DNA of 64,000 bases from Blastococcus capsensis (lineage in GTDB: Bacteria; Actinomycetota; Actinomycetes; Mycobacteriales; Geodermatophilaceae), in the NCBI RefSeq assembly GCF_030165005.1, contig NZ_JASNNW010000004.1:1-64000 (forward strand), given 5' to 3'. The position numbers and the translations under genes are program-made. Positions 3,328-57,288 of this stretch are shown in pieces. The notes beneath the pieces were generated by a model. The model did not search any database. It was not told the origin of the DNA and saw only the letters and a program-made list of their open reading frames with translations. Numbering within the stretch: the stretch's first letter is position 1; each line of letters begins with the position of its first letter.

Positions 3328-3388
3328 GAAGGACCCCGTCCTGCCCACCACTCGCAAGCTCGTGGCGGTGCCCTGGACGGGGCCGTTC
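3328..3388. repeat. Dispersed dyad repeat, copy A (fabH-acpP gap)
   Basis: 61-bp element with outer arms GGACCCCGTCC and GGACGGGGCC and inner arms CCACCACTCG and CGTGGCGG around the central CGCAAGCTCG. The same design recurs at 7581-7645, 12660-12874, 25854-25912 and 57175-57288. It lies in the fab mRNA between the fabH stop and the acpP start. Confidence 0.7.
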
Positions 3389-3428
3389 GTCGTCCGGGAC
3401 TGGGTGTCCCGGGGATCTGGGGCGGCGC

Positions 3429-4397
3429 TCACGGCAGGACGACGACTTGGCCGGCGAAGGTCAGGCCCGCTCCGTACCCGAGCAGCAGGGCGACGTCCCC
3501 GCTCTTGGACTCGCCGCTCTCCTGCAGGGCCGAGAGCGCCAGCGGCACCGAGGCCGAGGACGTGTTGCCGGAGCGGACGATGTCGCGGGCGATGACCGTG
3601 CGCTCGGGCAGCTTCAGCCGCTTGGCCATGAGCTCGATGATCCGCAGGTTCGCCTGGTGCGGCGCGAACACGTCGATGTCGTCGGGCCCGACGCCGGCGC
3701 GGCGCATGGCCTCCACCAGGGTGTCGGTGAGCTTGGTGGTGGCCCAGCGGTACACCGCCTGGCCGGCCATGCTCATGCCCGTCTCGTCCGGGGGGATGGC
3801 GATCGCCTCGTGCAGGTCGCCGTCGCTGCCCCACACGGCCGGGCCGATGGCCGGCTCGTCGGAGGCGCTGACGACCGCCGCCCCCGCGCCGTCGGCGAAG
3901 ATGACCGCCGTCGCCCGGTCGTCGAGGTTGGTGTAGTCGGTGAGCCGCTCGCCACCGATGACCAGGGCGTTGCGCGCCGTGCCGCTGCGGATGGCGTCGG
4001 CGGCCGCGCTGAGCGCGTAGCACCAGCCGGCGCAGCCGGCGTTGAGGTCGAAGGCGCCGGGGCGGGGCACGCCGAGCTGGTAGGCGATCCGGGGCGCGAG
4101 ACCGGGGATCGCCTTCGGCGGGCTCGTGGTCGCGAGCAGGACGAGGTCGATGTCGCCGGCGTCGAGTCCGCTGGCCGCCAGCGCCTTGCCGCCGGCGGCG
4201 ACGGACATCTCCACGAGCGTCTCGTCGGGTTCGGCCCAGCGCCGTTCGGCGATGCCCACCCGGCTCTGGACCCACTCGTCGTTGGTGTCCATCCGCTGGG
4301 CGAGGTCGTGGTTGGTCACCCGGCGGCGGGGGCGGTAGCTCCCGAAGCCGAGGATGCGGGCACCGGGGGCGCCGGCCGGTAGCTGGAGTCGGGTCAC
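3429..4397 (-). CDS. fabH: 3-oxoacyl-ACP synthase III (beta-ketoacyl-ACP synthase III)
   Basis: 322 aa initiating condensing enzyme that joins acyl-CoA primers to malonyl-ACP. The catalytic cysteine is in NAGCAGWCYAL at about residue 110. The His and Asn of the triad are in APHQANLRI and SGNTSSAS. The GTG start at 4397 overlaps the fabD stop (GTGA), indicating translational coupling, and gives the family N-terminus ARILGFGSYRP. In branched-chain-fatty-acid actinobacteria FabH uses isobutyryl- or anteiso-CoA primers. Substrate choice cannot be read here. Confidence 0.94.
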   Translation of the reverse strand: MTRLQLPAGAPGARILGFGSYRPRRRVTNHDLAQRMDTNDEWVQSRVGIAERRWAEPDETLVEMSVAAGGKALAASGLDAGDIDLVLLATTSPPKAIPGLAPRIAYQLGVPRPGAFDLNAGCAGWCYALSAAADAIRSGTARNALVIGGERLTDYTNLDDRATAVIFADGAGAAVVSASDEPAIGPAVWGSDGDLHEAIAIPPDETGMSMAGQAVYRWATTKLTDTLVEAMRRAGVGPDDIDVFAPHQANLRIIELMAKRLKLPERTVIARDIVRSGNTSSASVPLALSALQESGESKSGDVALLLGYGAGLTFAGQVVVLP

Positions 4398-5602
4398 GCG
4401 GTCACCTCCGGGTAGAGCCGGGCGATCGGGTCGCCGGCGTCGACGAGGTCGCCCTCGTGCACCAGCCATTCGGCCAGCACACCGTCGTAGGCGGCGGAGA
4501 CGTTGAGCTCTTCCCGCCGGCCGCGGATGCACCCCAGCGGCGTGCCCGCAGGCAGGCGCGTGCCCTCGGCGACCTCGGCGGGGCTGACGGTGCCGCGGGC
4601 GGGGGCGACGACCATCCGCCAGTCGGGGAAGTACTCGGCCTCGGCGCGGCCGCGCTCGGCCTCGATGAGCGCCCGGGCGTGGTCGAGGTCCGCCGGGCTG
4701 CTGACGGCGAGCACCTCGATCCCCGCGCCCTTCCACTCGCGCTTGGCCAGCCCCGCCAGCGCCCCGGCGGGCGGCAGCTCGATCACGGCGGTGACACCGA
4801 GCTCGCGCATGGTGGCCAGGCAGGAGTCGAAGCGCACCGGGCTGGTGACCTGGCTGACCAGGCGGGCCAGCGCCTCGCGGCCGGAGTCGACGGCGGCGCC
4901 GTCGGCGTTGGAGAGCAGCAGCCGGCTCGGGTCGGCCGGACGCACCCCGCCGACCAGACTTTCGAGCTCCTCGCGCGCCGGGGCCATGTACTCGGTGTGG
5001 AAGGCGCCGGCGACCGGCAGCGGCATGACGCGGGCCTTGGTCGGCGGGTCGGCCTTGAGCGCGTCGAGCCCGTCGAGCGGGCCGGCGGCCACGATCTGGC
5101 CTGCCCCGTTCATGTTCGCCGGGGTCAGCCCGTGCCGGCCTATCGCCTCGAGGACCTCGTCGGGGTCGCCGCCCAGGACGGCGGACATCCCGGTGGGTGT
5201 GCGGGCGCACGCGGCGGCCATGGCCCGCCCGCGGACGGCGGTGAGCGCGATCGCCGCCTCGACGGACAGCACGCCGGCCAGCGCGGCGGCGGTGAGCTCA
5301 CCGACGCTGTGCCCGGTGATGACGACGTCGCGACCGGTGTGCGGCGTGTGGGTGACCGTCCCGGGGAGGCCGCCCAGCTCACGGGCGACGAAGATGCTCA
5401 TCGCGACGACGAGCGGCTGGGTGACGGCGGTGTCCTTGATCGCCTCGGCGTCACCGGTGGTGCCCAGGGTCAGCAGGTCCGCGCCGGCGATGGCCCCGGC
5501 CCAGCGGAAGAACGGCTCCGCTCCCGGCAGGTCGAGCCAGTCGGTGAGCATCCCGGGCTTCTGGGCCCCCTGACCAGGGGCGAGGACGGCGAGCACCTCC
5601 AC
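4394..5602 (-). CDS. fabD: Malonyl-CoA:ACP transacylase with C-terminal biotinyl/lipoyl-like domain
   Basis: 402 aa from the GTG at 5602. Residues 1 to about 310 are a standard FabD: APGQGAQKPGM at the start, the nucleophile in GHSVGE, and an arginine and histidine (AFHTEYM) in their usual places. It loads malonyl groups onto ACP. The last 75 or so residues are an extra domain that reads like a biotinyl/lipoyl hairpin (APARGTV, then VHEGDLVDAGDPIARL), but the MKM turn is replaced by GRREELN, so the acceptor lysine is absent. FabD is usually about 300-320 aa. The start is uncertain: no good ribosome site precedes 5602, and a GTG at 5689 would add 29 residues overlapping the operator at 5664-5680. 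Confidence 0.9.
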   Translation of the reverse strand: MEVLAVLAPGQGAQKPGMLTDWLDLPGAEPFFRWAGAIAGADLLTLGTTGDAEAIKDTAVTQPLVVAMSIFVARELGGLPGTVTHTPHTGRDVVITGHSVGELTAAALAGVLSVEAAIALTAVRGRAMAAACARTPTGMSAVLGGDPDEVLEAIGRHGLTPANMNGAGQIVAAGPLDGLDALKADPPTKARVMPLPVAGAFHTEYMAPAREELESLVGGVRPADPSRLLLSNADGAAVDSGREALARLVSQVTSPVRFDSCLATMRELGVTAVIELPPAGALAGLAKREWKGAGIEVLAVSSPADLDHARALIEAERGRAEAEYFPDWRMVVAPARGTVSPAEVAEGTRLPAGTPLGCIRGRREELNVSAAYDGVLAEWLVHEGDLVDAGDPIARLYPEVTA

Positions 5603-5663
5603 ACCGTGCCAGTGATCACCGCGGCGCGCGGCAGGATCGAGTACGAAAGGACACCGTTGATCT

Positions 5664-5680
5664 TTGTAGGATTCCTCCAA
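5664..5680. promoter_or_regulatory. Palindromic operator upstream of fabD (candidate FasR site)
   Basis: TTGTAGGA-T-TCCTCCAA is a 17-bp inverted repeat with one mismatch, AT-rich against its surroundings. It is 62-78 bp upstream of the likely fabD start and about 77 bp downstream of the stop of the adjacent regulator gene. In Streptomyces coelicolor FasR, encoded in the same position, activates fabD from a site in this intergenic region. Equating this dyad with that site is inference. Confidence 0.6.
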
Positions 5681-5756
5681 CACGCGCACGCGTTCGGCGT
5701 CGTCACCGATCGCTCAGTGGTGGGAACCGCACGCCTGACGCCCCTCGGCGACGGGC

Positions 5757-6935
5757 TCAGTGCCAGAGCGACCGGTCGCGGTCCAGGGCCGCCAGGACGA
5801 GCGCGACCTGCAGGGTCCAGCTGCCGCGGGGGTCGGTCGCCGAGAGGCCGGTCAGCTCGGCGGCGCGCTTGAGCCGGTACCGGACCGTGTTGGGGTGCAC
5901 GAAGATCGCCCGCGCGCTGGCCTCCAGGTTGCCGCCGCTGTTGAGCACCGCCCGGACGGTCTCCAGCACACCGCCGCCGGCCGAGCGCAGCGGCGCGGCC
6001 ACCCGCTCCTGCAGCGCCGCCCGGGCCAGCGGGTCGCCGTCGAGCGCGCGTTCGGCGAGCAGCGCGTCCGCGGCGACCGGGCGGGGGGCCTCGGGCCAGG
6101 CGCGCGCCGCCCGCAGCCCGGCGAGCGCCGCCGCCGCCGAGACCGCGGCCCGGCCCAGCCCGTCCACGACCGGGCCGGTGACCACCGGGCCGTCGCCGAA
6201 CTCGTCGCTGATCCGTTCCGCCACGGTCTCGAGGTCGCCGGTGCCGCCCAGCACCACGACCAGCTGCTCGGCGTGCACGCCGACCAGGATGTCGCAGCGC
6301 AGGCTCCGCGCGGCGCGGCGCACGGCGCCGTGCGGGTCGGCGAGCCCGGACGGGGTCGCCCCGACGACCACGAGGGCGAACGTGCCGGCCGCCCAGCCGA
6401 GCGCCGCCGCCCGGCCGGAGAGCTCGTCGGACCGTTCGCCACGCACCAGGGCGTCGACGACGAGCGCCTCCAGGCGCGCGTCCCAGGCCCCCCGGCTCTC
6501 GGCGAAGCTGGCGTAGACGTGCGCCGTGGCGAAGGCGACCTCCCGGCTGAACTGGAGGACCGCCAGCCGCAGGTCCTCCTCGTCCCCGGGCGCGGCCACG
6601 GAGGCGACGCGCTCCTCGACCACCTCGACGGTGACCTTGATCAGGTCCACCGTCTGCTTGAGCGCCACCGCCCGGACGAGCTCCCGGGGGGCCGCGCCGA
6701 ACACCTCCCCGGTGAGCCGGGGCGGACGGCCGGGGCTGCGGCACCAGTCGACCAGGGAGGCGATACCGGCCTGCGCCACGAGCGTCACCCACGATCGCTG
6801 GTCGGCCGGCATGGCCCGGAACCAGGACAGGTCCTCGTCCATCCGGGCGACGGCCTGGGTGGCCAACGACCCGGACGCGCGCTCCAGCCGCCGGAGCGTG
6901 GCATCGCTCGGCGGGCGGTTGGTCACCCGGCTCAC
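5757..6935 (-). CDS. fasR: PucR/CdaR-type transcriptional activator of the fab operon (FasR-like)
   Basis: 392 aa. The C-terminal about 60 residues form the PucR helix-turn-helix (GGNLEASARAIFVHPNTVRYRLKR split across the two helices). The middle carries a GGDEF-like/ligand module (ILVGVHAEQLVVVLGG). The N-terminus has a helical segment common to SCO2386 and Rv2242 relatives. It lies directly upstream of fabD on the same strand, the position of FasR in Streptomyces, where it activates fabD-fabH-acpP-fabF. The GTG at 6935 is used; a GTG at 6926 is also possible. Divergent transcription begins 41 bp away. This is distinct from the TetR-type FasR of mycobacteria. Confidence 0.85.
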   Translation of the reverse strand: MSRVTNRPPSDATLRRLERASGSLATQAVARMDEDLSWFRAMPADQRSWVTLVAQAGIASLVDWCRSPGRPPRLTGEVFGAAPRELVRAVALKQTVDLIKVTVEVVEERVASVAAPGDEEDLRLAVLQFSREVAFATAHVYASFAESRGAWDARLEALVVDALVRGERSDELSGRAAALGWAAGTFALVVVGATPSGLADPHGAVRRAARSLRCDILVGVHAEQLVVVLGGTGDLETVAERISDEFGDGPVVTGPVVDGLGRAAVSAAAALAGLRAARAWPEAPRPVAADALLAERALDGDPLARAALQERVAAPLRSAGGGVLETVRAVLNSGGNLEASARAIFVHPNTVRYRLKRAAELTGLSATDPRGSWTLQVALVLAALDRDRSLWH

Positions 6936-6976
6936 CCGGTCAGCGTGTCACGTCGGCCGAGCTCGGGAAGAGTGGA

Positions 6977-7576
6977 GTGGTGAACGTTCCCCCGGTCGGC
7001 GCCCTCGGGACCACCCCGGTGACCGGTCTGGAGTCCCGGGTCGTCCTCGCCCCCGACGACGGCTCCCTCGGCCCGCTGCTGCGGATCGCCGACGACCGGC
7101 TGGCCCCCGGGGCCGGCTACGGCCGGCACGAGCACCGCGCGGTCGACGTGGTCGCCGTCGTGCTCGCGGGGACGCTGACCCACCGGTGGGCGGCCGGGGC
7201 GCAGCTGACCACCGGCGACGTCGCGGTGCTGCGTGCGGGAGCGGGGCTGGCCCACGACGAGGTGGCCGGCAGCGAGGGTGCCTGGGTGCTGCAGTGCTAC
7301 CTGCGCAGCGCCGCACCGGCCGTCCCCGCGGCCCCGGCGGCCCACGTCGTCCACCGGGGGGCCGGTGGATGGGTGGACCTCGGCCGCGCGGACGCCCGCC
7401 TGTGGATCGGGCGCACCGAGGCGGGCGGTGAGCTGACGGCGCCCCCGGGGACGACGCTGGTCGCCGACGCCGGAGCGGTGCGCCGAGCCGACGGCGGGCG
7501 GGTGCGGCTGCAGGGACCGGGCCGCGTCCTGGTCTGGCAGCTCGACGTCGAGCGACCGGCCTGGGCAGAGTGGTGA
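6977..7576 (+). CDS. Pirin-like bicupin protein
   Basis: 199 aa. The first half is a cupin with the pirin/YhhW pattern: HEHRAVDVVAVVLAGTLTHR, a GDVAVLRAGAGLAHDE turn and metal-ligand histidines. The second half is a degenerate cupin ending in VLVWQLDVERP. Pirins are nuclear regulators in eukaryotes, and some bacterial ones are quercetinases. The substrate here is unknown. It is about 30-80 aa shorter than typical pirins. Two adjacent GTG codons (6977, 6980) are possible starts, with GGAAGAG upstream. It is divergent from fasR and overlaps the start of the peptidase gene that follows. Confidence 0.75.
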   Translation: MVNVPPVGALGTTPVTGLESRVVLAPDDGSLGPLLRIADDRLAPGAGYGRHEHRAVDVVAVVLAGTLTHRWAAGAQLTTGDVAVLRAGAGLAHDEVAGSEGAWVLQCYLRSAAPAVPAAPAAHVVHRGAGGWVDLGRADARLWIGRTEAGGELTAPPGTTLVADAGAVRRADGGRVRLQGPGRVLVWQLDVERPAWAEW

Positions 7577-8832
7577 GCATGGAATCGGCCTCCTCGCAGG
7601 GTCCCGCCGCGAGCGTGCGAGCGGAGGGGGGCGAGGAGGTCCTTTCTCTGCTCGCCGCCGCGTACTCCGACGCCGACCGCACCATCGAGCTGCGCCGGCA
7701 GCTGCACCGCACCCCGGAGATCGGGCTGCACCTCCCACGCACCCAGGCCACGGTCCTCGAGGCCTTCGCCGAACTGCCCATCGAGGTGACCACGGGTACC
7801 ACCACCAGCTCCGTCGTCGGGGTGCTGCGGGGTGCCCGCCCGGGGCCCACCTACCTCTTGCGCGGCGACATGGACGCCCTCCCGGTGCACGAGGACACCG
7901 GCCTGCCCTTCGCCTCGCAGGTGCCCGGCGCGATGCACGCCTGCGGGCACGACACCCACGTGGCGATGCTGGTGGGTGCGGCCCGGCTGCTCGCGGCGCG
8001 GCGGGAGGCGCTGGCCGGGCAGGTCGTCTTCATGGTCCAGCCGGGGGAGGAGGGCTTCCACGGCGCGCGCTACATGCTCGAGGAGGGCCTGCTCGACGTC
8101 GTCCCGGAGGCGCCGGTCAGCGGGGCGTTCGCGCTGCACGTCTCGTCCACGCTGCCCAGCGGCACGGTCAACGTCCGCCCGGGGGCGATGATGGCCGCCG
8201 CGGACCAGTGGCGGATGACCGTGCGCGGCCGCGGGGGGCACGCCTCCGAGCCGCACGCGGCCGCGGACCCCATCCCGGTGGCCGCCGAGATCGTGCTCGC
8301 GCTGCAGTCGATGGTCACCCGCCGGGTCGACGTCTTCGACCCCGCCGTGGTGACCGTCGCCCACATCGAGGCCGGCTCCACCAACAACGTCATCCCCGAC
8401 ACCGCCTACCTGGAGGGGACGATCCGGACCCTTTCGCCCGAGCGGCGGGCCGATGTGGTGGCCTCGGTGGAGCGGGTGGCCGGCCACGTCGCGGCCGCGC
8501 ACGAGATGGCGCTGCACTGGGAGCACATCGAGGGCTACCCGGTCACCATGAACGACCCGGGCATGGCCGCCCAGGTGCTGGAGGCGGCGGCCGACCTCCT
8601 GGGCCGGGAGGCCGCGGTGCTCATGCCCGCGCCGCTGATGGGTGCCGAGGACTTCTCCTACGTGCTGCAGCGGGTGCCCGGCGTCATGGCGTGGCTCGGC
8701 GCCCGGCCGCACGGCGTCGACCCGGCCACCGCGCCACCCAACCACTCCAACCTCGTCGTCTTCGACGAGGAGCCGCTGCCGGCCGGCGTGGCGCTCTACG
8801 CGCGGATGGCGCTGCAGGCACTGTCCGGCTGA
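7573..8832 (+). CDS. M20-family amidohydrolase/peptidase
   Basis: About 419 aa. Metal-site motifs typical of M20D amidohydrolases (IAA-amino acid hydrolase/hippurate hydrolase type) are present: RGDMDALPV, ACGHDTHVAML, the catalytic PGEEGFHGA and the C-terminal metal histidine in NHSN. The lid domain sits at about residues 200-310. It should hydrolyse N-acyl amino acids or related amides in the cytosol. The start is GTG 7573 (GTGA overlap with the pirin gene), with ATG 7579 as alternative. The first 25 or so residues are encoded by a copy of the dispersed dyad repeat (7581-7645) and lack family similarity. Homology begins around residue 28 with YSDADRTIELRRQLHRTPE. Confidence 0.88.
   Translation: MSMESASSQGPAASVRAEGGEEVLSLLAAAYSDADRTIELRRQLHRTPEIGLHLPRTQATVLEAFAELPIEVTTGTTTSSVVGVLRGARPGPTYLLRGDMDALPVHEDTGLPFASQVPGAMHACGHDTHVAMLVGAARLLAARREALAGQVVFMVQPGEEGFHGARYMLEEGLLDVVPEAPVSGAFALHVSSTLPSGTVNVRPGAMMAAADQWRMTVRGRGGHASEPHAAADPIPVAAEIVLALQSMVTRRVDVFDPAVVTVAHIEAGSTNNVIPDTAYLEGTIRTLSPERRADVVASVERVAGHVAAAHEMALHWEHIEGYPVTMNDPGMAAQVLEAAADLLGREAAVLMPAPLMGAEDFSYVLQRVPGVMAWLGARPHGVDPATAPPNHSNLVVFDEEPLPAGVALYARMALQALSG
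7581..7645. repeat. Dispersed dyad repeat, copy E (inside the 5' end of the M20 gene)
   Basis: Reverse-oriented copy of the repeat at 3328-3388. Read on the minus strand it has outer arms GGACCTCCTCGC and GCGAGGAGGCC around CGCTCGCACGCTCGCGGCG. Both arms differ from copy A yet remain complementary. It is translated as the N-terminal tail of the peptidase. Confidence 0.65.
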
Positions 8833-8859
8833 TGCGACCGGGCGGGTCCAGCCTGCCGA

Positions 8860-8980
8860 ACCGACGTGGGGGCCCCCCCGGGCGCGGGGCCCCGCCAGGC
8901 CGGCCGGGGGGAAGCGCGGGGGGCCCCCCGCCCGCCCCGGGGGGGGGGGGGGGGGGGGGGCCGCCCCCCCCCCGTCAGCC
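8860..8980. other. G/C homopolymer tract between convergent genes (likely sequence artefact over a terminator)
   Basis: Runs of C7, G5-6, C6, about G22 and C10 fill the gap between the M20 gene and aceE, which converge here. The bases on either side look normal. A GC hairpin terminator would be expected at this spot. The homopolymers look like miscalled or collapsed reads across it. No reading frame can be trusted in this segment. Confidence 0.6.
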
Positions 8981-9013
8981 GGTCAGGGTCGATCCGCGTG
9001 GGGCACCGGTCGT

Positions 9014-11815
9014 TCAGGTCGCCGGGCTGGGGTCCGACCGCTCCTCGGCCGGCGCGGCCTGCACGTCGCGCACCTGGTACTTCTCCACGGCCTGCCGGAC
9101 CGTCGCGCGTTCGACCTGCCCCTCGTCGGCCAGCGACGCCAGCGTGCGGACCACGATCGACTCGGCGTCCACGTGGAAGTGCCGGCGCAGCGCCGGGCGG
9201 GTGTCGGACAGCCCGAACCCGTCGGTACCCAGCGTCGACATGCCGCCGGGCACGTACGGCGCGATGAGGTCGGGGACGGCGCGCATCCAGTCCGACACCG
9301 CCACGACCGGGCCCACGGTCTCCTGCAGGCGCGAGGTCACGAACGGCATGCGCGGCTCCTCCTCCGGGTGCAGGAGGTTCCACTCGGCGCACTCGTCGGC
9401 CTGCCGGCGCAGCTCGCCCCAGGACGTCACCGACCAGACGTCGGCCGAGATCCCCCAGTCCTGCGCCAGCAGTTCCTGCGCCCGCAGCGCCCACGGCACC
9501 GCGACGCCGGAGGCGAGGACCTGTGCCTTCGGGCCGTCTCCCTGTGGGCCCTCGGCGTAGCGGTACATGCCCGCCAGCAGCCCCTGCACGTCGAGCCCCT
9601 CGGGCTCGGCCGGCTGGACGAACGGCTCGTTGTAGACCGTCAGGTAGTACATGACGTCCGGCGACCGGTGCCCGCCCAGCGGCGAGCCCTGGTCCTGGCC
9701 GTACATGCGCACCAGGGCGTCCTTGGTGATGTGCGCGACCTCGAAGGAGAACGCCGGGTCGTAGGAGACCACCGCCGGGTTGGTGTGCGCCAGGAGCAGC
9801 GAGTGCCCGTCCTCGTGCTGCAGGCCCTCGCCGTTAAGCGTCGTCCGGCCGGCCGTGGCGCCGAGCACGAAGCCCCGCGTCATCTGGTCCGCCGCCGCCC
9901 AGAAGCCGTCACCGGTCCGCTGGAACCCGAACATCGAGTAGAAGATGTAGATCGGGATCATCGGCTCGCCGTGCGTCGCGTACGAGCTGCCGACGGCGGT
10001 GAACGATGCCGTGGACCCGGCCTCGTTGATTCCTTCGTGCAGGATCACGCCCTGCTCGGATTCCTTGTAGGCCAGCATCAGCTCGCGGTCGACCGACGTG
10101 TAGCGCTGCCCGGCCGGGTTGTAGATCTTCTGCGACGGGAAGAGGGAATCCATCCCGAAGGTCCGTGCCTCGTCGGGGATGATCGGCACGAAGCGGGGGC
10201 CGAGCTCCTTGTCCTTCAGCAGCTCCTTCAGCAGGCGGACGAACGCCATCGTCGTCGCCACCTCCTGCTTGCCCGAGCCGCGGCGCAGCACCTCGAGCGC
10301 CTTGTCCTCGGGGGCCTTGAGGGTCTTGAACTCCGCCCGCCGTCGCGGCACCGCGCCGCCCAGCGCCCGGCGCCGCTCGAGCATGTACTGCATCTCGTCG
10401 GACTCGGGGTCGGGCTTGTAGTAGGGCGGCAGGGTCTTGTCCAGCGCCTCGTCCGGGATCGGCAGGTAGAGCCGGTCGCGGAAGTCGGCGAGGTCCTCCG
10501 CGGTCAGCTTCTTCATCTGGTGGGTGCTGTTGCGGCCCTCGAAGTGGCTGCCCAGCGTCCAGCCCTTGATGGTCTTGGCGAGGATCACCGTGGGCTGGCC
10601 CTTGTGCTCCATGGCGGCCTTGTAGGCGGCGTAGACCTTGCGGTAGTCGTGCCCGCCGCGGGCGAGGTCCCAGACCTCCTTGTCGCTCATCCCCTCGACG
10701 AGCTTGCGGGTGCGGGGGTCCCGCCCGAAGAAGTGCTCGCGGACGAACGCGCCGTCCTCGGCCTTGTAGGTCTGGTAGTCGCCGTCGGGCGTGGAGTTCA
10801 TCAGGTTGACCAGCGCGCCGTCGCGGTCGGCGGCCAGCAGCTTGTCCCAGCCGCGGCCCCAGATCACCTTGATCACGTTCCAGCCGGCGCCCCGGAAGAA
10901 CGACTCCAGCTCCTGGATGACCTTGCCGTTGCCGCGGACCGGGCCGTCGAGCCGCTGCAGGTTGCAGTTGACGACGAAGGTGAGGTTGTCCAGCTCCTCA
11001 CGGGCCGCCAGGCCGATCACGCCCAGCGACTCGGGCTCGTCCATCTCGCCGTCGCCGAGGAAGGCCCACACGTGCTGGTCGGAGGTGTCCTTGATGCCCC
11101 GGGCGTGCAGGTAGCGGTTGAACCGGGCCTGGTAGACGGCGTTCATCGGCCCGAGGCCCATGGAGACGGTGGGGAACTCCCAGAACTCGGGCATGAGCCG
11201 CGGGTGCGGGTAGGACGACAACCCGCCGCCGGGGTGGCTGACCTCCTGGCGGAAGCCGTCGAGCTGGTGCTCGGTCAGCCGGCCCTCCAGGAAGGCGCGG
11301 GCGTAGATGCCCGGGGAGGCGTGGCCCTGGAAGTAGATCTGGTCGCCGCCGCCGGGGTGGTCCTTGCCGCGGAAGAAGTGGTTGAAGCCCACCTCGTACA
11401 GCGAGGCCGAGGAGGCGTAGGAGGAGATGTGCCCGCCGACGCCGATGCCCGGGCGCTGCGCCCGGTGCACCATGATCGCGGCGTTCCAGCGGATGTACGC
11501 GCGGATCCGTCGCTCGACGTGCTCGTCGCCGGGGAACCACGGCTCCTGCTCCGGCGGGATGGTGTTGATGTAGTCGGTGCTGCGCAGGGCCGGCACGCCC
11601 ACCTGCTGCTCGCGGCTGCGCTGCAGCATGCGGAGCATCAGGTACCTGGCGCGGTTCCGGCCGGCGTGGTCCACGACGGCGTCGAGGGACTCCAGCCACT
11701 CCTGGGTCTCGTCGGGGTCGGTGTCGACCAGCTGACTGGGGAGCCCGTCGGTGATGACCGCTCGGGCGTGTCCTTCCCGGGCGGGGTCGCCGACCGGCTG
11801 CTGCGGTGCGCTCAT
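9014..11815 (-). CDS. aceE: Pyruvate dehydrogenase E1 component, homodimeric type
   Basis: 933 aa, matching the family's usual 880-940. Thiamine-diphosphate binding is shown by [12 protein letters not shown] at about residue 270. The N-terminal substrate segment [17 protein letters not shown] and the C-terminal transketolase-like domain are present. It decarboxylates pyruvate and passes acetyl to the lipoyl E2, giving acetyl-CoA that feeds the neighbouring fatty-acid genes. The ATG at 11815 is chosen: GGACGATAGGGCC precedes it and the protein then starts [10 protein letters not shown]2 and E3 are not nearby, as is usual for actinobacterial aceE. Its position between fasR/fabD and the DUF3052-ahpE pair is conserved in my recollection of Mycobacterium and Streptomyces. 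Confidence 0.96.
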
Positions 11816-12237
11816 GGCCCTATCGTCCACCGCCGACGTAGCCCTCGTCACGTCCGCTGCCGCTGGATGGAGAAGTCGTGTCGCGCCGCGGCCCGTCCCT
11901 GCGGCGGAGGCGGTGGCCCTACCAGGCTTGCGTCGTGCCGGTCATGGCCTACGCTTCCGCCTGCGGTGCCGTGACCTACGGCGCCTCCCGGATGTCCGGC
12001 CCTGACGGGCCGGGCGGCGGGCGCGTCGGTGGAGCGAGAGGGGTGACATGACCGGGGTGCGGGTGGTTCTCCCGCTGGTCGTGTCCGTCGTCCGCGCGCG
12101 CCCGTCCGGCCTCGTCCCGATCTCGTGGCCCGTACGGTCGTCGGTGTGACGCGTCCCCGTGCGCTCACCGGTCCGACAGGGCACCATCCACCCCACACCA
12201 GGTCAGCAGAGGACCCACCCATGGAGGAGCAGCAGGG
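11816..12237. other. Divergent intergenic region aceE/DUF3052
   Basis: 422 bp with no coding sequence I can support. It must hold the aceE promoter (leftward) and that of the DUF3052 gene (rightward). One weak rightward candidate is TTGCGT (11928-11933), a 16-bp spacer, then TACGCT (11950-11955). No clear operator, riboswitch or repeat was seen. Confidence 0.4.
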
Positions 12238-12657
12238 ATGAGCGTCGACAGCGCCGGCATGGCGGCCCGGCTGGGCATCAAGCCGGGCATGGTCGTGCAG
12301 GAGCTCGGCTGGAGCGAGGACGCCGACGAGGACCTGCGCGACTCCGTCGTCGAGGTCTCGGGCAGCGAGATGGTGGACGAGGACACCGACGAGGTGGCCG
12401 ACGTCGTGGTCCTGTGGTGGCGGGAGGACGACGGCGACCTGTTCGACGCCCTCACCGACGCGCTGACCTCGCTGGCCGACGAGGGCGTGGTCTGGCTGCT
12501 CGTGCCGAAGTCCGGCCGCCCCGGCCACGTCGAGCCCGGTGACGTCACCGAGGTCGCGCCCACCGCCGGTCTGTCGCAGACCAGCAGCATCTCCGCGGCT
12601 AAGGACTGGTCGGGCATCCGCCTGGTCACGCCGAAGGCCGCCCGCAGCCGCCGCTGA
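12238..12657 (+). CDS. DUF3052 family protein
   Basis: 139 aa, small and acidic, conserved across actinobacteria next to aceE and ahpE. The body contains GIKPGMVVQELGW, WWREDDGDLFDAL and the C-terminal KDWSGIRLV typical of DUF3052. The function is unknown, and no catalytic motif or membrane segment is visible. ATG 12238 has AGGAGCAGCAGGG immediately upstream. An ATG at 12221 is out of frame. It reads towards the tandem repeat array at 12660, which fills the gap to ahpE. Confidence 0.85.
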   Translation: MSVDSAGMAARLGIKPGMVVQELGWSEDADEDLRDSVVEVSGSEMVDEDTDEVADVVVLWWREDDGDLFDALTDALTSLADEGVVWLLVPKSGRPGHVEPGDVTEVAPTAGLSQTSSISAAKDWSGIRLVTPKAARSRR

Positions 12658-12659
12658 TT

Positions 12660-12874
12660 GAAGGGCCACCCCTCCCCCCACGCCTCGCAGGCTCGGCGCA
12701 GGCCCCTGAGGGGTGGCCGCTCCAGCACGTCACCAGGCTCGCGGCGGGTCCCTGCAGGAGGGCCGTTCCAGCCCGTCACCAGGCTCGGCGCGGGCCCTTG
12801 AGGGGTGGCCGTTGCAGTACGTCACCACGCTCGCGGCGGGCCCCTGGCAGGGGGCCGTTCCGGCACGTCACCAC
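12660..12874. repeat. 46-bp tandem array of the dispersed dyad repeat (copy D)
   Basis: A first unit of about 65 bp (12660-12724) is followed by three units of exactly 46 bp (12725-12770, 12771-12816, 12817-12862) and a 12-bp partial unit. The shared core is CGTCACCA-GCTCG-GGCGGG-CCCTG-GGCCGTTCCA. The core matches copies A-C and E of the dispersed repeat (GCTCGCGGCGGG, GGGCCGTTCC). It occupies almost the whole DUF3052-ahpE gap. Confidence 0.75.
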
Positions 12875-12893
12875 GTGAGGCACGATCACGGGC

Positions 12894-13355
12894 ATGAGCC
12901 TCTCCGTCGGTGACCGCGCGCCCGAGTTCAGCCTCCCCGACCAGGACAAGCAGGTCGTCTCACTCGCCGACCTGCGGGGCACGCCTGTGCTGCTGGTCTT
13001 CTACCCGTTCGCCTTCTCCGGCATCTGCACCGGTGAGCTGTGCCAGCTGCGCGACGAGCTGGGCGCCTACACCGGTGCCGGGGTGAAGGTGCTCGCGATC
13101 AGCACCGACCCCGTCTTCAGCCTCAAGGCGTTCCAGGCACAGGAGAACCTCGACTTCCCGCTGCTGTCGGACTTCTGGCCGCACGGGGCCACCGCCCAGA
13201 CCTACGGGGTCTTCAACGAGAAGGCCGGCATGGCCGTGCGGGGAACGTTCCTCATCGACGCCGAGGGCACCATCGCCTTCGCCGAGGTCAACGGGCCCGG
13301 GGACGCCCGCCAGCAGAGCGGCTGGAAGGACGCGGTCGCGAAGCTCGCCGCCTGA
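12894..13355 (+). CDS. ahpE: AhpE-like 1-Cys peroxiredoxin
   Basis: 153 aa thioredoxin-fold peroxidase. The peroxidatic cysteine is C45 in YPFAFSGICTGE, the same position as in M. tuberculosis AhpE. A second cysteine (C50) follows closely. It reduces hydrogen peroxide, organic peroxides or peroxynitrite in the cytosol, with a low-molecular-weight thiol such as mycothiol as probable reductant (family knowledge). ATG 12894 lies 20 bp after the tandem repeat array, which must form its 5' region or promoter. A hairpin and tRNA-Val follow. Confidence 0.9.
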   Translation: MSLSVGDRAPEFSLPDQDKQVVSLADLRGTPVLLVFYPFAFSGICTGELCQLRDELGAYTGAGVKVLAISTDPVFSLKAFQAQENLDFPLLSDFWPHGATAQTYGVFNEKAGMAVRGTFLIDAEGTIAFAEVNGPGDARQQSGWKDAVAKLAA

Positions 13356-13371
13356 ACGCCGACCGGCCACA

Positions 13372-13396
13372 GGGCCCGGGGCCATACCCTGGGCCC
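13372..13396 (+). terminator. Hairpin after ahpE
   Basis: GGGCCCGGGG (13372-13381) pairs with CCCTGGGCCC (13387-13396) with one mismatch across a 5-nt loop, 17 bp after the ahpE stop and 3 bp before tRNA-Val. It is a likely rho-independent type terminator without a U-tract. Confidence 0.5.
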
Positions 13397-13399
13397 GCG

Positions 13400-13471
13400 G
13401 GGCGCGTAGCTCAGCGGTAGAGCTCTCGCCTTACAAGCGAGCGGTCGCAGGTTCGAACCCTGCCGCGCCCA
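13400..13471 (+). tRNA. tRNA-Val (anticodon TAC)
   Basis: Complete 72-nt cloverleaf. The acceptor arms are GGGCGCG (13400-13406) and CGCGCCC (13464-13470) with discriminator A. The D stem is GCTC/GAGC. The anticodon stem CTCGC/GCGAG encloses CTTACAA, with TAC at 13432-13434. The T arm GCAGG-TTCGAAC-CCTGC is standard. CCA is not encoded. No variable arm. Confidence 0.96.
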
Positions 13472-13589
13472 CCCCACCTGACCGCGTCGTACGGGGTGCA
13501 CCCGGTTTCCGGCCCGCGTGCGTAGGACGGCGGTCGTGCGACCCGCGACGGCGACCCTCCTGCGCATCGTGGCGCACTACGGTCGCCGC

Positions 13590-13775
13590 ATGCCGTACTG
13601 CGACGCCGACGACGGGACCCGGCTGCACTACGACCGGCTCGGGGTCGGCGGCGGCGAGCCGCTGGTGGTGCTGGCCGGCGGCGCGGCGCGGCATCCGTCC
13701 TACCTCGGCGACCTTGCCGGGCTCGGTGAGGTGCGCCCGCTGGTGGTCCCGCACCTGCGGGGGATCGGGCGCTCG
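13590..13775 (+). pseudogene. Truncated alpha/beta hydrolase (N-terminal fragment)
   Basis: From the ATG at 13590 about 62 codons read as the N-terminus of an alpha/beta hydrolase: DGTRLHYDRLG, a PLVVLAGGAARHPSYL oxyanion segment and HLRGIGRSP, equivalent to the usual RGxGxS turn. Similarity stops at about 13775. Beyond it the frame stays open by chance through antisense of another relic. The catalytic serine, acid and histidine regions are all missing. It abuts, head-on, the cut end of a potassium-channel gene. Confidence 0.7.
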
Positions 13776-13785
13776 CCCCCGGAGC

Positions 13786-14141
13786 GCTGCGCCGGCGTAG
13801 CGGTTGAGCACGCTGAGCACGGTGACCAAGCGCAGCAGGCGCAGTGGTCGCAGCATCGGCAGGACCACGACGGCCAGGTCGAGCAGGTGCGTGCGGACGA
13901 ACCGCCCTCGGTCGTGCGCGAGCACCAGCCGCACGACGTAGTCGACGGCGAAGGCGGCCCAGGTCACTCACGCGACGACGTCGAAGGCGGTCCGCCACGG
14001 CCGGGCCAGGTCGGGGTCGAGGATCGGCCATGCGCAGGCGGCGAGGAACAGCAGCGAGGCTGCGGTCAGCGGCCACTCCGCCGTCCGTTCCCAGCGTTGG
14101 AGGCGGGTGGGGGACACCCGCCGAGGATCCCGTCCGCCCAT
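13786..14141 (-). pseudogene. Broken voltage-gated-type potassium channel gene
   Basis: On the minus strand from about 14141 (ATG; GTG 14117 also possible) the frame encodes an ion-channel voltage-sensor-like segment: EWPLTAASLLFLAACAWPIL, then FDVVA, then WAAFAVDYVVRLVL, RPLRLLRLVTVLSVLNRYAGAALRG. A TGA at 13970-13968 interrupts it in frame, between FDVVA and VTWAAF, where a tryptophan (TGG) would fit. The 3' part, including the pore and selectivity filter, is missing; similarity ends near 13786 against the hydrolase fragment. So it has a nonsense codon and is truncated. Confidence 0.7.
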
Positions 14142-14179
14142 CCGGCGCTTTCCCCGCCGGAGAAGGGGATGCGCCGTTC

Positions 14180-14992
14180 TCAGGCGGCGGACTGCGCGGA
14201 GATGGTGTCCGGGCTCGGCGCCGCCGGCGTGGCGGGCTTCGGGAAGGCGGGGCGCAGGAACGCCGGGGCCTTGAACGGCGCCCACTCGCCCTCGGGCTGG
14301 GCCAGCCGGTCGGCGATCGCCCACAGCGCCGCCGGGTGGTGGCCGATGCCCAGGTGGCTGGCGGTGACCGCGATGTTCTCGCAGCGCTCGCCGGGCACGT
14401 CCAGGCAGGTCTGCCAGTGCACGATGCCGTCGTAGTGCGAGTAGATCGACGTCGCGGGCACCGGCAGGGGGCAGCCTTCGGACTCGAGCGGGAACTGACG
14501 CTGCTCCACGTGCAGGTGGGCGTAGCGGTCGAACGCCTTGCTGGCCCGGGTCTGGCTGTGCCGCTCGATGCGGAACGGGCTGCCGAGGGTGATCACCTGG
14601 CGCACCTGGTCGGGGCACTGCCGGGCGAGGTCGCGGGCGAAGATGCCGCCCAGGCTCCAGCCGATGACCGTCACCTCGCGGCGGTAGCGGCCGTGCAGGT
14701 AGTCGAGCTTGTCGCGCAGTCCGTTGACGCAGGTGGCGGTCGGGCCGATGTTGCGGCCCAGGCCCCAGCCGTGCACCCGGTAGTCGAGCCGCCGGAGCGT
14801 CGCGCGGAGAACCCGGGTGGAGGAGTCGTCGGCGAGCAGCCCGGGCAGGACCAGCACCGGGTGCCCGTCGCCCCTGGGTAGCCGCTGTGCGAGCGGGCGG
14901 GCGGCCAGGTAGAGGCCGAAGTCCGCGACCGCCCGCCCGGGCTCGCTCAGGTAGAGCGGAAGAGCCGGACCGTCACCCTGCTGTCGTGCCAC
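14180..14992 (-). CDS. Alpha/beta hydrolase (lipase-like)
   Basis: 270 aa. The nucleophile elbow is GWSLGG (serine at about residue 120), preceded by HPVLVLPGLLADDSS and a substrate region rich in tyrosine and histidine. The acid and histidine are plausibly in SHYDGIVHW and ASHLGIGHHP. The closest recognised type is the triacylglycerol lipase/PGAP1-like family. It has no signal peptide. The start at 14992 follows a divergent promoter region shared with the hydrolase gene at 15213. Substrate unknown. Confidence 0.8.
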   Translation of the reverse strand: MARQQGDGPALPLYLSEPGRAVADFGLYLAARPLAQRLPRGDGHPVLVLPGLLADDSSTRVLRATLRRLDYRVHGWGLGRNIGPTATCVNGLRDKLDYLHGRYRREVTVIGWSLGGIFARDLARQCPDQVRQVITLGSPFRIERHSQTRASKAFDRYAHLHVEQRQFPLESEGCPLPVPATSIYSHYDGIVHWQTCLDVPGERCENIAVTASHLGIGHHPAALWAIADRLAQPEGEWAPFKAPAFLRPAFPKPATPAAPSPDTISAQSAA

Positions 14993-15083
14993 GTCGTCCT
15001 CCTGGCTGCCGTCCGTTGGTGGAACCGCTGTACCAATGTGCGGTCTGGCTCACACTTCCGCGGGCGCCCCGCGCGCACAGATG

Positions 15084-15112
15084 TTGCCGAACTGTGTCCT
15101 GCGTCATATCAG
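15084..15112 (+). promoter_or_regulatory. Sigma70-type promoter for the hydrolase at 15213
   Basis: TTGCCG (15084-15089), a 17-bp spacer and TATCAG (15107-15112) are close to housekeeping consensus in an otherwise GC-rich region. They would start transcription near 15119, about 95 bp before the ATG. Confidence 0.45.
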
Positions 15113-15212
15113 TCGTGGTCGTTCCGCTGGTGGGCGGCCGGAGGGCTGGTGCTGCGGGAGCTGGCAGGACGTGCCACCGTACGGGCGGCCTGACACGGGG
15201 AGAGGGGTACCG

Positions 15213-16124: not shown

Positions 16125-16143
16125 GTCCGAACACCGCGGGCCG

Positions 16144-18638: not shown

Positions 18639-18781
18639 GTCTCACTCCTCGCCGCCCCGGTCGCCTCTGGCCAGGGCCGTCGCACGTATCGGCCGGCAGC
18701 CGAAGTTATGTGTGCCGCGCAGTGCGCGCCAACCGATCTTGTGGCCCGGCGCACATCCTGGGGTGCCCGGGATCCGGCTGC

Positions 18782-19774: not shown

Positions 19775-19901
19775 GGCGCCATCCCAGAGGGCGCGGCCGC
19801 CCGGCGCAACCGGGGGCGGGACGGGATGCGGTTGCGACGACCGCTAGAAGCCGCCTGCGCCGGGACGACGACGGGCGCGCGAGGACCACCGATGGAGCGG
19901 C

Positions 19902-25851: not shown

Positions 25852-25853
25852 CA

Positions 25854-25912
25854 GAAGGACCCCCGTGCCCCCCACCACTCGCATGCTCGTGGTGGGCCCC
25901 TGCACGGGGGCC
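25854..25912. repeat. Dispersed dyad repeat, copy B
   Basis: Clear dyad: outer arms GGACCCCCGTGC and GCACGGGGGCC, inner arms CCCACCAC and GTGGTGGG around TCGCATGCTC. The pairing is better than in copy A, with matched changes on both sides (GTGC/GCAC versus GTCC/GGAC). It lies 2 bp after a stop codon and 33 bp before the zinc-ribbon gene. Confidence 0.72.
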
Positions 25913-25944
25913 GGAGGTGGTGGGCGCACGGGTAGGTTGGACGG

Positions 25945-30811: not shown

Positions 30812-30827
30812 TCGCACAGCCCGGTCC

Positions 30828-30924: not shown

Positions 30925-31072
30925 CTCGATCGGCGGCCCGTGATCCCGGTCGCCGATCGGGCCTTCGGGTATCGAGGCCCACCGATCATGGAGGAGCGGG
31001 GCGCTGCGCTCATGGCTGGTGACGCGCCGTGCTTCTTCGCGGAGGGTCCCAGAAAAGCTAGCGCGTGACCTA

Positions 31073-31106: not shown

Positions 31107-31293
31107 GTCCGCCGATCGGCGGACCCGGATGGCCGCCCGCCGAACCTGCCCACGGCCACCGGAGGCGTCGAGACGACGGGCAGACGCGGGGGACCCACGG
31201 ACAGTGGCCCTCCGGGCCTCGGGGTGAAGCCGCACGACGCGGCCGGGCAGCTCTCGCCCGAACCCGACAGCTAACTCCGCAGGCGGTGAGAGG
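31107..31293 (+). promoter_or_regulatory. ydaO/yuaA-type c-di-AMP riboswitch
   Basis: The leader shows the conserved blocks of this class in order: CGCCGAACCTGCCCACGG (31140-31157 or so), CGACGGGCAGACG, GGGGTGAAGCCGC (31220-31232), CGCCCGAACCCGACAGCTAAC (31255-31275, read in two parts) and CCGCAGGCGGTGAGAG. Actinobacterial members commonly precede genes for cell-wall enzymes and turn them off when c-di-AMP binds (family knowledge). The next gene encodes a LysM wall protein 12 bp downstream, which fits. Exact boundaries are approximate. Confidence 0.85.
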
Positions 31294-55231: not shown

Positions 55232-55280
55232 TCCGGTCGCGGTAGCGGACGACGCGCTGCGCCCGTGGTCTCATGTCGGC

Positions 55281-55709: not shown

Positions 55710-55750
55710 TCCGGCAACCAGGACGGCCACGACCCGATCGGGAAAGCGCG

Positions 55751-55809: not shown

Positions 55810-55823
55810 GAGCGGACTGGATC

Positions 55824-57173
55824 ATGGCGGGCATGGACCGACAGCAGGAATTCGTCCTGCGGACCCTCGAAGAGCGCGACATCCGCTTCGTGCGGCTGTG
55901 GTTCACCGACGTCAGCGGCTACCTCAAGGCCGTCGCGGTGGCCCCCGCCGAGATCGAGGCCGCGTTCGCCGAGGGCATCGGCTTCGACGGGTCGGCGATC
56001 GAGGGCTTCGCGCGCGTCTACGAGTCCGACATGCTCGCCAAGCCCGACCCCGGCACGTTCCAGGTGATGCCCGCCCGCGAGGGGCGGGCCAGCGACACCG
56101 CCCGGATGTTCTGCGACATCACCCTGCCCGACGGCTCACCCTCGTGGGCCGACCCCCGCCACGTGCTGCGCCGGGCCCTGGCCAAGGCCGCCGACATGGG
56201 GTTCACCTTCTACACCCATCCCGAGATCGAGTTCTTCCTGCTGAAGGACCTGCCCACCGACGGCAGCGCCCCGCAGCCGGCGGACACCGGCGGCTACTTC
56301 GACCTGTCCACGCACAACGTGGCGCACGACTTCCGCCGGGAGGCCGTCTTCGCGCTCGAGGCCATGGGCATCTCGGTGGAGTTCAGCCACCACGAGGTCG
56401 CGCCCGGCCAGCAGGAGATCGACCTCCGGTACGCCGACGCGCTGTCGATGGCAGACAACATCATGACGCTGCGGCACGTCGTCCGGGAGGTGGCGCTGGC
56501 CCAGGGTGTGCATGCCACGTTCATGCCCAAGCCGTTCACCGAGCTGGCCGGCTCCGCGATGCACACCCACCTGTCGCTGTTCGAGGGCGACCGAAACGCC
56601 TTCCACGACCCGGCCGACCCGATGCGGCTGTCCACGACCGGCAAGCAGTTCATCGCCGGCCTGCTCACCCACGCCCGAGAGGTCACCGCCGTCACCAACC
56701 AGACGGTGAACTCCTACCGGCGGCTGCTGGCCGGCACCGAGGCGCCGACCGCGGCGACGTGGGGCCGGGCCAACCGCTCCGCGCTGGTGCGGCTGCCCTC
56801 CTACAAGCCGAGCAAGGCGCAGTCCGCCCGCGTCGAGATCCGCTCGCCGGACTCCGCGTGCAACCCGTACCTCACCTTCGCCATCCTGCTGGCCGCCGGG
56901 CTGCGGGGCATCGAGAGGGGCTACGAGCTGCCGCCGGAGGCCGAGGACGACGTCTGGTCGCTGACCGACACCGAGCGCCGCGCGGCCGGGTACGAGGACC
57001 TGCCGGTCTCCCTCGGTGAGGCGCTGACCGCGATGCAGGGCAGCGAGCTGGTCGCCGAGACCCTCGGCGAGCACGTGTTCGAGTTCTTCCTGCGCAACAA
57101 GTGGGAGGAGTTCAACTCCTACCGCCGGAACGTGACGCCGTTCGAGCTGCAGCGCTACCTGCCGGGGCTCTGA
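55824..57173 (+). CDS. glnA2: Glutamine synthetase (GlnA2 type)
   Basis: 449 aa, close to mycobacterial GlnA2 (about 446 aa). GFDGSAIEGF, metal-site EIEFFLL and GQQEIDLRY, AGSAMHTHLSL and the ATP/ammonium motifs RRLLAGTEAPTAATWGRANR are present. The adenylylation tyrosine region near the C-terminus (NLYxLP type) of GSI-beta enzymes is replaced by YRRNVTPFELQRYL, as in GlnA2, which is not adenylylated in the usual way. The start is ATG 55824 (or 55833, giving MDRQQEF as in relatives). The glutamine amidotransferase and glnE follow. Confidence 0.92.
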   Translation: MAGMDRQQEFVLRTLEERDIRFVRLWFTDVSGYLKAVAVAPAEIEAAFAEGIGFDGSAIEGFARVYESDMLAKPDPGTFQVMPAREGRASDTARMFCDITLPDGSPSWADPRHVLRRALAKAADMGFTFYTHPEIEFFLLKDLPTDGSAPQPADTGGYFDLSTHNVAHDFRREAVFALEAMGISVEFSHHEVAPGQQEIDLRYADALSMADNIMTLRHVVREVALAQGVHATFMPKPFTELAGSAMHTHLSLFEGDRNAFHDPADPMRLSTTGKQFIAGLLTHAREVTAVTNQTVNSYRRLLAGTEAPTAATWGRANRSALVRLPSYKPSKAQSARVEIRSPDSACNPYLTFAILLAAGLRGIERGYELPPEAEDDVWSLTDTERRAAGYEDLPVSLGEALTAMQGSELVAETLGEHVFEFFLRNKWEEFNSYRRNVTPFELQRYLPGL

Positions 57174-57174
57174 G

Positions 57175-57288
57175 GAAGGAGCCCCTCGCTCCCCACGGCG
57201 TGCTCCGTGGAAGGACCCCGCCCTCCTCACCACTCGCAAGCTCGCGGCGAGCCTCCGGACGGGGCCGCCCCTGCGAGGGGGCCGTTCC
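57175..57288. repeat. Dispersed dyad repeat, nested copy C
   Basis: An outer unit (GAAGGAGCCCCTCGC at 57175 and GCGAGGGGGCCGTTCC ending 57288) is split by a second, full unit (57209-57266 or so) that runs from GAAGGACCCCG to GACGGGGCC around ACCACTCGCAAGCTCG. The outer arms pair (CCCCTCGC/GCGAGGGG). It looks like one copy inserted in another, 2 bp after the glnA2 stop. Confidence 0.65.

What the first reader, a model, noticed from the sequence alone, without database searches (positions are those of the whole stretch)
3328..57288. Dispersed dyad repeat family with compensated arms
About 60-bp elements occur at 3328-3388, 7581-7645, 12660-12874, 25854-25912 and 57175-57288. All share a core CACTCGCA-GCTCG and outer arms that differ between copies but stay complementary (GTCC/GGAC in A, GTGC/GCAC in B, CCTCCTCGC/GCGAGGAGG in E). 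Matched changes suggest selection on the hairpin or a mechanism that copies palindromes. Four of five loci are intergenic. It resembles a REP/MITE-like element, with no transposase here.
Basis: partly seen in the sequence, partly recalled or inferred. Interest (0 to 1): 0.75.

Follow-up and report, generated by a model that had tools for sequence, protein, structure and literature searches.

The report
Mobile hairpin repeats at stop codons
The five repeats belong to a large family of short DNA hairpins, scattered through soil bacteria related to Blastococcus, that appear to jump into the ends of genes, often right at the stop codon, and keep their folded shape even as their sequence changes, although no enzyme that moves them has been found.

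Summary
All five loci carry one element of about 63 bases; a covariance model built from 11 copies finds all five. The genome is a Blastococcus relative with 139 matches at E<=1e-5 among 150 candidates scored. Arms covary beyond shuffled and slid controls. One strand folds best: outer helix with a bulged T, 5/2 internal loop, inner helix, tandem G.A, GC-NT-GC tip. The family is nearly confined to Geodermatophilaceae (32 of 36 genomes; 0 of 24 from other families).

Copies are present or absent between relatives at the same site and nest inside each other. In 26 of 47 own copies one end abuts a stop codon (1.7% expected). Eight orthologous copies show G-C, G.T and A-T states on the folded strand, favouring selection on the hairpin over palindrome copying there. 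At glnA, eight copies are 86-97% identical where silent sites are 68-84%, so some copies look recruited.

Anatomy is REP-like, but size, GTAG tag and RAYT transposase (0 of 112 genomes) are not met. Verdict: a REP-like family with an unknown mover; a new variant of a known kind.

The parts
3327..3389 (-). Element A, complete (8-bp variable arm CCCCGTCC/GGACGGGG), between a beta-ketoacyl-ACP synthase III gene (3429-4397, -) and a short gene (3050-3295, -), not at a stop codon; no copy at this site in 5 of 5 relatives compared
   Evidence: R1 match 58.3 bits, E 7.7e-13; Pfam ACP_syn_III; relatives
7582..7646 (+). Element B, complete (9-bp arm CCTCCTCGC/GCGAGGAGG); lies inside the open frame of an M20 peptidase gene at its start (7570-8832, +); also present in G018
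   Evidence: R1 84.4 bits; Pfam Peptidase_M20; alignment
12659..12723 (-). Element C, complete (arm CCACCCCTC/GAGGGGTGG), 1 nt after the stop of a DUF3052 gene (12238-12657, +)
   Evidence: R1 76.8 bits; Pfam DUF3052; distance
12688..12871 (.). Tandem 46-base right-half units overlapping and following element C (AGGCTCGCGGCGGGnCCCTG..GGCCGTTCCAGCACGTCACC)
   Evidence: the repeat finder family D2, spacing 46
25853..25917 (-). Element D, complete (arm CCCCCGTGC/GCACGGGGG), 1 nt after the TAG of gene 25396-25851 (+); shared with G007, no copy in G008, G018, G017
   Evidence: R1 85.8 bits; distance; alignment
57211..57266 (-). Element E, inner copy of a nested pair downstream of glnA (55824-57173, +)
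   Evidence: R1 match 57209-57271, 58.3 bits; boundaries and fold; glnA by Pfam
57176..57288 (-). Element E, outer older copy (57176-57210 plus 57267-57288), 2 nt after the glnA stop, interrupted in its loop by the inner copy; single uninterrupted counterpart in G007 and G013
   Evidence: (joined flanks fold as one hairpin, -32.6 kcal/mol)

Best explanation
A REP-like, non-autonomous mobile hairpin family of the Geodermatophilaceae. Each copy is about 63 bases and folds from one strand (the one reading CGAGCNTGCGAG): foot GG..CC, a 10-11 bp outer helix with a bulged T on its 3' arm, a 5/2 internal loop, an 8-bp inner helix, a tandem G.A and a GC-NT-GC tip. Shown: large copy number, covariation, presence/absence between relatives, nesting into older copies, both orientations, tight placement of one end at stop codons in over half of the own copies (T then a purine run; CT|GA is the commonest form, T|AG the next). 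Inferred: copies are spread in trans by an unidentified enzyme that recognises the folded single strand and joins it after a T, favouring CT; no Y1/RAYT transposase was found to do it. Inferred with support: after insertion a copy becomes the 3'-end hairpin of the upstream gene, can take the place of a native hairpin, and at some loci (glnA, upstream of icd) is then kept by selection. Arms therefore change in matched steps because the fold, more than the arm sequence, is constrained.
For: Copies: 147 matches at E<=1, 139 of them at E<=1e-5, of 150 candidates scored (capped); 47 places in 864 kb scanned whole. Covariation: 10 of 21 pairs with double changes in 11 copies; 131 double-changed cells against 37 in shuffles in the 48 rows of A3. 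Folded strand: lower energy on that strand at 5 of 5 window loci, lower z at 4 of 5; outer-helix G.T 26 against A.C 9, p 0.006 (rows partly related). Mobility: no copy at site A in 5 of 5 relatives and at D in 3 of 4 read; at C45:271212, 5 of 20 relatives have a full copy, two of them inverted; nesting at 57176-57288 and in Geodermatophilus L164; 0 to 88 matches within one genus under one setting. Stop adjacency: 26 of 47 within 6 nt of a stop, chance 1.7%, p 6e-34; CTGA 16 of 18 against 395 of 664 genes, p 0.013; T before the purine run in 58 of 79 own copies against a 26% share. Host-level selection: 8 orthologous copies with, at one pair, G-C in four, G.T in two, A-T in one, G/A in one; glnA-site copies 86-97% identical where glnA 4-fold sites are 68-84%, the element higher in 28 of 28 pairs, while Blastococcus copies from other loci reach at most 0.88 to those eight.
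Against: No mobilising gene and no longer autonomous relative: a search for split elements with complementary arms further apart found 5 pairs, none convincing. No target duplication was evident; some sites show replaced rather than simply interrupted sequence (site A). No two of 85 distinct own copies exceed 92.3% identity, so the own genome shows no very recent burst (in G014 five matches, three of them in tandem, share one score, but their sequences were not read). Two G.T positions make up 40 of 47 inner-helix G.T cells in A3; outside them the inner helix is 7 to 7. At locus B the z-score is lower on the other strand (-3.80 against -2.43), and the 86-base stretch at E folds no better than many shuffles (z -1.45). 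In A3 the number of pairs with double changes is only modestly above shuffles (12 against 8.7, 3 of 500 reach it). One of the 8 orthologous copies has a G/A mismatch. CTGA counts in relatives (34 of 37) come from repeated loci and are not independent. Orthology of the glnA copies is inferred; repeated insertion of one subfamily is not excluded, and no Klenkia or Modestobacter copies from other loci were compared. Zero counts in relatives are at E<=1e-5 with strict filters.
Confidence: 0.6

Rival explanations
1. Host 3'-end hairpins (terminators or mRNA stabilisers) that are not transposons: selected hairpins at gene ends whose sequence is homogenised and moved by ectopic recombination or gene conversion between copies.
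For: One end sits at stop codons; few copies between divergent genes (2 of 42 against 130 of 549 gaps, p 0.003); at the icd-upstream locus 11 of 20 genomes read have the element where the other 9 have a different hairpin that includes the stop codon (by eye); conservation at glnA; loop types differ at one glnA site while flanks agree (L135 against L147).
Against: Insertion into the loop of an existing copy and into the start of a coding region (7582), sites without a copy in relatives, opposite orientations at one locus, and few or no matches in same-genus genomes such as G022 (0) and G011 (2). A T run of four or more follows the foot of the hairpin in only 3 of 85 distinct own copies on the folded strand and 0 of 85 on the other (one further copy, C40:112419, by eye); none of the 3 terminator-like sites in window 1-20000 falls on elements A, B or C.
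Confidence: 0.25
2. Palindrome-copying: matched arm changes arise because one arm templates repair of the other (quasipalindrome template switching), not by selection.
For: Two adjacent pairs differ together between orthologous copies in G000 and G008 (CCCCTTCGC/GCGAAGGGG against CCCCTCTGC/GCAGAGGGG); C-G to G-C swaps are common in the outer helix (16 against 21 at one pair).
Against: Bulged T, 5/2 loop and G.T pairs persist; orthologous copies show one-sided departures, 3 of 4 of them G.T on the folded strand.
Confidence: 0.08
3. A RAYT-mobilised REP family whose transposase was missed or has been lost.
For: REP-like placement, stop-codon supply, stem variants and nesting in palindromes (PMC3733652, sections and passages); TnpAREP cuts at CT next to the REP (PMC8266576, passages) and the element end here most often follows CT (23 of 79, GT 19 of 79).
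Against: NF047646 in 0 of 112 family genomes, PF01797 in 0 of 36, while 32 of those 36 carry the element; no conserved GTAG tag; about 63 bases instead of 20-40.
Confidence: 0.05

Closest known systems
GTAG and CGTC REPs (repetitive extragenic palindromes; Di Nocera 2013, PMC3733652: abstract, passages and sections 5, 6, 15 read)
   Same: [quoted passage not shown] CGTC REPs also lack a dedicated transposase
   Different: About 63 bases with two helices and an internal loop instead of 20-40; no conserved GTAG or CGTC tag; another lineage (a term search of that paper has 0 hits for Actinobacteria)
TnpAREP/REPtrons of E. coli and Stenotrophomonas (Corneloup 2021, PMC8266576: abstract and passages read)
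   Same: Bulged or interrupted hairpin on one strand; element end next to CT
   Different: No RAYT-type Y1 HUH transposase in 112 family genomes
RepRanger REP predictions (PMC12306157: passages read)
   Same: Predicts REPs in bacteria at large, three Actinomycetota species among those in a table passage
   Different: 0 hits for Geodermatophil- or Blastococcus in the main text; predictions by general criteria, no covarying family like this one seen in the passages
Rickettsia palindromic elements (as described in PMC3733652)
   Same: Copy B lies within a coding frame
   Different: Only 5 of 47 own copies overlap called genes
MITEs
   Same: Short, dispersed, non-coding, terminal complementarity
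   Different: No target duplication seen; no parent transposon found

Membership tests
REP (GTAG/CGTC super-families) | 20-40 bp palindrome | tested here: not met
   81 of 85 distinct own matches span 60-67 bases, model flanks of 9 bases included; size range from PMC3733652 abstract
REP (GTAG/CGTC super-families) | Conserved unpaired GTAG (over 90% of members in most families) or CGTC tag at one end | tested here: not met
   At the stop-codon end of 26 copies only 5 have GTAG; 18 have TGA. CGTC occurs in the optional extension GTTCCAGCACGTCACC but not as a constant tag
REP (GTAG/CGTC super-families) | High copy number, mainly intergenic, near 3' ends of upstream ORFs | tested here: met
REP (GTAG/CGTC super-families) | Stem variants with complementary changes | tested here: met
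RAYT/TnpAREP-mobilised REP | RAYT (Y1 HUH) gene in the genome | tested here: not met
   NF047646 0 of 112 family genomes (rings in 6 of 14 control genomes, over the cut-off in 1); PF01797 0 of 36 (rings in 5 of 14 controls)
RAYT/TnpAREP-mobilised REP | Cleavage of the folded single strand at CT beside the hairpin | not testable with these tools
   Only the junction preference (T before the purine run, CT commonest) was seen
MITE | Terminal inverted repeats shared with a transposase-bearing parent | tested here: inconclusive
   No convincing distant arm pair in the stretches scanned; the whole genome was not scanned
MITE | Target site duplication | tested here: not met
   None evident in comparisons read by eye; in L164 a 2-base AG repeat at the junction would also fit
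Intrinsic terminator | GC hairpin followed by a T run | tested here: not met
   T run of 4 or more in 3 of 85 copies (folded strand) and 0 of 85 (other strand); no terminator-like site on A, B or C (D and E not scanned)
Integron attC site | R'/R'' end boxes and an integron integrase | not tested
   Considered for its bulge, one-strand fold and place after a stop; boxes known to me from recall only
Known Rfam RNA families | Match to a family | tested here: not met
   No element locus among the 4 listed matches at E<=1

The most novel reading that the evidence does not exclude
A hairpin-dispersal system of its own kind: an enzyme unrelated to Y1/RAYT transposases moves a folded single strand and joins it at T, preferably CT|GA, that is at stop codons, where the hairpin is immediately usable as a gene's 3' end and can be recruited by the host.
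Probability: 0.3. Interest if true: 0.8.

Novelty: new variant of a known kind. Interest (0 to 1): 0.55.

Why it matters
REPs are the usual example of bacterial palindromes thought to be spread by a domesticated HUH transposase. A family with REP-like anatomy and placement, in a lineage where no such transposase was found, in a genus where matches run from 0 to more than 100 per genome, makes two open questions testable: what else can disperse hairpins, and how a selfish hairpin turns into a conserved 3'-end element (glnA, upstream of icd).

Tried and rejected
Rfam: no match at the elements. RAYT/Y1: not found in the family genomes searched. Plasmid and phage records: no match to copy D at E<=0.01. 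Split or autonomous version: 5 distant arm pairs in the window, own stretches and relatives' stretches; four look like chance coding matches, one (L223) pairs an element arm with another hairpin. Cruciform on both strands: disfavoured by the outer-helix excess of G.T over A.C. Exclusively convergent terminators: 31 of 47 lie between co-directional genes. Intrinsic terminators by T run. Integron attC-like site: considered, not tested. A second palindrome type noticed at glnA in relatives was looked for in 864 kb of the own genome with a loose pattern; the 29 hits looked unrelated to it by eye. Literature on such a repeat in this bacterial family: the listed rows showed none, and searches listed no paper; the lists were cut to the best rows, and most subscription journals are not held. 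One paper on Geodermatophilaceae genomes was searched for 'palindromic' and 'repeat' and gave CRISPR and unrelated mentions only; PMC2817692 gave no hit for the terms tried. No supplementary files were read.
Full report
CHECK. The five loci were read. A covariance model (R1) was built from 11 own-genome copies that share a 9-bp variable arm, three of them from the window (B, C, D). It finds the five window loci at E 5e-20 to 8e-13, with the next match at E 1.3. In alignment A2, 98.7% of cells pair, 10 of 21 pairs have changes on both sides, and 0 of 500 shuffles reach any of the five measures; slid partners score 0.05-0.14 against 0.32. In A3 (48 rows from 864 kb; one row is the reverse strand of another copy) 131 cells have a double change against 37 in shuffles; pairs with a double change number 12 against 8.7 (3 of 500 reach it). 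A3 was fitted to the model and so leans towards it; A2 was ungapped.

STRUCTURE. On the strand reading CGAGCNTGCGAG: GG + 8-9 bp variable helix, a bulged base (mostly T) in the 3' arm, a 5/2 internal loop (AGGGN/GG), an 8-bp inner helix, tandem G.A, tip GC-NT-GC, then TTC after the CC foot. That strand has the lower energy at 5 of 5 window loci and the lower z-score at 4 of 5; at B the other strand has the lower z, and the 86-base stretch at E is weak (z -1.45). The ends of the outer helix hardly vary; its middle six pairs mix C-G, G-C, T-A and a few others. G.T exceeds A.C in the outer helix (10 against 3 in A3, 16 against 6 in A4; together p 0.006; some A4 rows are orthologous). In the inner helix two G.T positions carry the excess and the rest is 7 to 7. 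This favours one strand as the folded one, as RNA or as single-stranded DNA; the data do not separate these.

COPIES AND SPREAD. The longer core pattern has 27 hits in the own genome and 0 reversed. In 864 kb scanned whole there are 47 places, which would extrapolate to about 240 per genome. Of 60 genomes (own included), 32 have matches, all 32 among the 36 of the own family and 0 among 24 from other families. Across the class, 3 of 197 have matches: the own genome and two weak ones. Named relatives place the genome with Blastococcus. In the own genus matches run from 0 (G022), 2 and 4 to 88 in a search with strict filters that scored 87 or so candidates per genome; with 150 scored, G018 has 121 and G008 48. 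In G014 five matches have one and the same score, three of them 66 bases apart; they may be near-identical, but were not read.

PRESENCE AND ABSENCE. Site A is filled only in G000 among six genomes. D is filled in G000 and G007, without a copy in three, and unread in G013. B is shared with G018. At C45:271212, G000, G008 and G018 share a copy, G002 has other arms, G007 and G015 have inverted copies, G021 a remnant, and 14 of 20 relatives have neither. At C45:271744 17 of 20 relatives lack a copy, G016 has a short one, and where the others read ATCTGA, G000, G013 and G018 read ATCTAG: the element supplies AG. Further sites behave alike. No target duplication was evident; several sites show short replaced stretches. 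Nesting: at 57176-57288 the outer copy has its uninterrupted counterpart in G007 and G013 (4 of 22 glnA ends read in the genus carry an element, G010 gave no reading), and the joined flanks fold as one hairpin; Geodermatophilus L164 shows the same arrangement.

STOP CODONS. The CCTTC end (AAGG on the gene's strand) lies within 6 nt of a same-direction stop in 26 of 47, 14 of them at distance 0; 1.7% is expected for non-coding positions. In the window itself this is true of C and D, and of the outer copy at E; A, B and the inner copy at E do not do so. TGA is preceded by C in 16 of 18 against 395 of 664 genes (p 0.013). In relatives 51 of 60 copies have a stop triplet there against 6 of 60 at a control position 25 nt upstream (triplets not checked by gene calls, loci not independent). 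The base before the purine run is T in 58 of the 79 own copies in which the foot was found, of 85 distinct copies, against a 26% share; CT is the commonest pair (23), then GT (19). This includes the stop-codon copies.

HOST USE. Upstream of icd (named by eye from its start), 11 of 20 genomes read have an element directly after the stop and the other 9, own included, have a different hairpin there by eye; one genome, G006, gave no reading. Eight of the 11 share the 3' flank; on the folded strand one pair is G-C in four, G.T in two, A-T in one and G/A in one, and in one of the four the next pair is T.G. Fixed copies do not need to move, so matched change there points to a role for the host. At glnA, 17 of 46 loci from genome contigs hold a match. 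For eight of them from Blastococcus, Modestobacter and Klenkia, chosen for their shared loop type, element identity is 0.86-0.97 and glnA 4-fold-site identity 0.68-0.84, the element being higher in 28 of 28 pairs. Copies from other loci, all from Blastococcus, reach at most 0.88 to those eight (L196:7026 listed there is the G013 glnA copy itself, and the G007 glnA copy was left out). Descent with constraint is my reading; repeated insertion of one subfamily is not excluded.

TERMINATOR TEST. A T run of four or more follows the foot in 3 of 85 distinct own copies on the folded strand and in 0 of 85 on the other (C40:112419 has one that the counting window cut off). The pattern scan of window 1-20000 puts none of its 3 sites on A, B or C.

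MOVER. PF01797 hits 0 of 36 family genomes and NF047646 0 of 112; both ring in control genomes. No autonomous version was found in the stretches scanned. E. coli TnpAREP cuts at CT beside the REP (PMC8266576, passages), so the CT preference here is suggestive of similar chemistry by something else. That is inference.

COMPARISON. REPs described in PMC3733652 (abstract, passages, sections 5, 6 and 15) share placement, stop supply, complementary stem variants, G-T pairs, insertion in palindromes and coding insertions. Size, tag and RAYT were tested here and not met. Hence: works like a REP, is not filed as one.

Noticed in passing
L113, L115, L120, L123, L128 (glnA downstream region): A second palindrome type (CTCTGCGGGT-CTGCAGG-ACCCGCAGAGC-like) sits downstream of glnA in several relatives and in Geodermatophilus L159, L160, L165.
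   Followed up: partly
window 31186-31280: c-di-AMP riboswitch match (48.3 bits); also RNase P RNA at 29334-29736 and a tRNA at 13400-13471.
   Followed up: no
window 8889-8988 and 30819-30925: Long runs of G and C in two inverted places; may be real intergenic tracts or assembly artefacts.
   Followed up: no
L006 around 1501-1514: The core tip within a hairpin with wholly different arms; a similar solo tip lies upstream of icd in G000.
   Followed up: no
L065, L067, L068: Hairpins with the same CTCGCANGCTCG tip but other arms in a genome of another family (G061), 7 weak matches.
   Followed up: partly
G018 whole chromosome (one search list): Folded-strand orientation seems biased about two to one between the two halves of the chromosome (hand count of a list cut at 150 rows); may follow from gene orientation.
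   Followed up: partly
L105 around 13445-13507: A copy seen in G000 but in none of 20 relatives, directly beside what looks by eye like a tRNA gene end.
   Followed up: no
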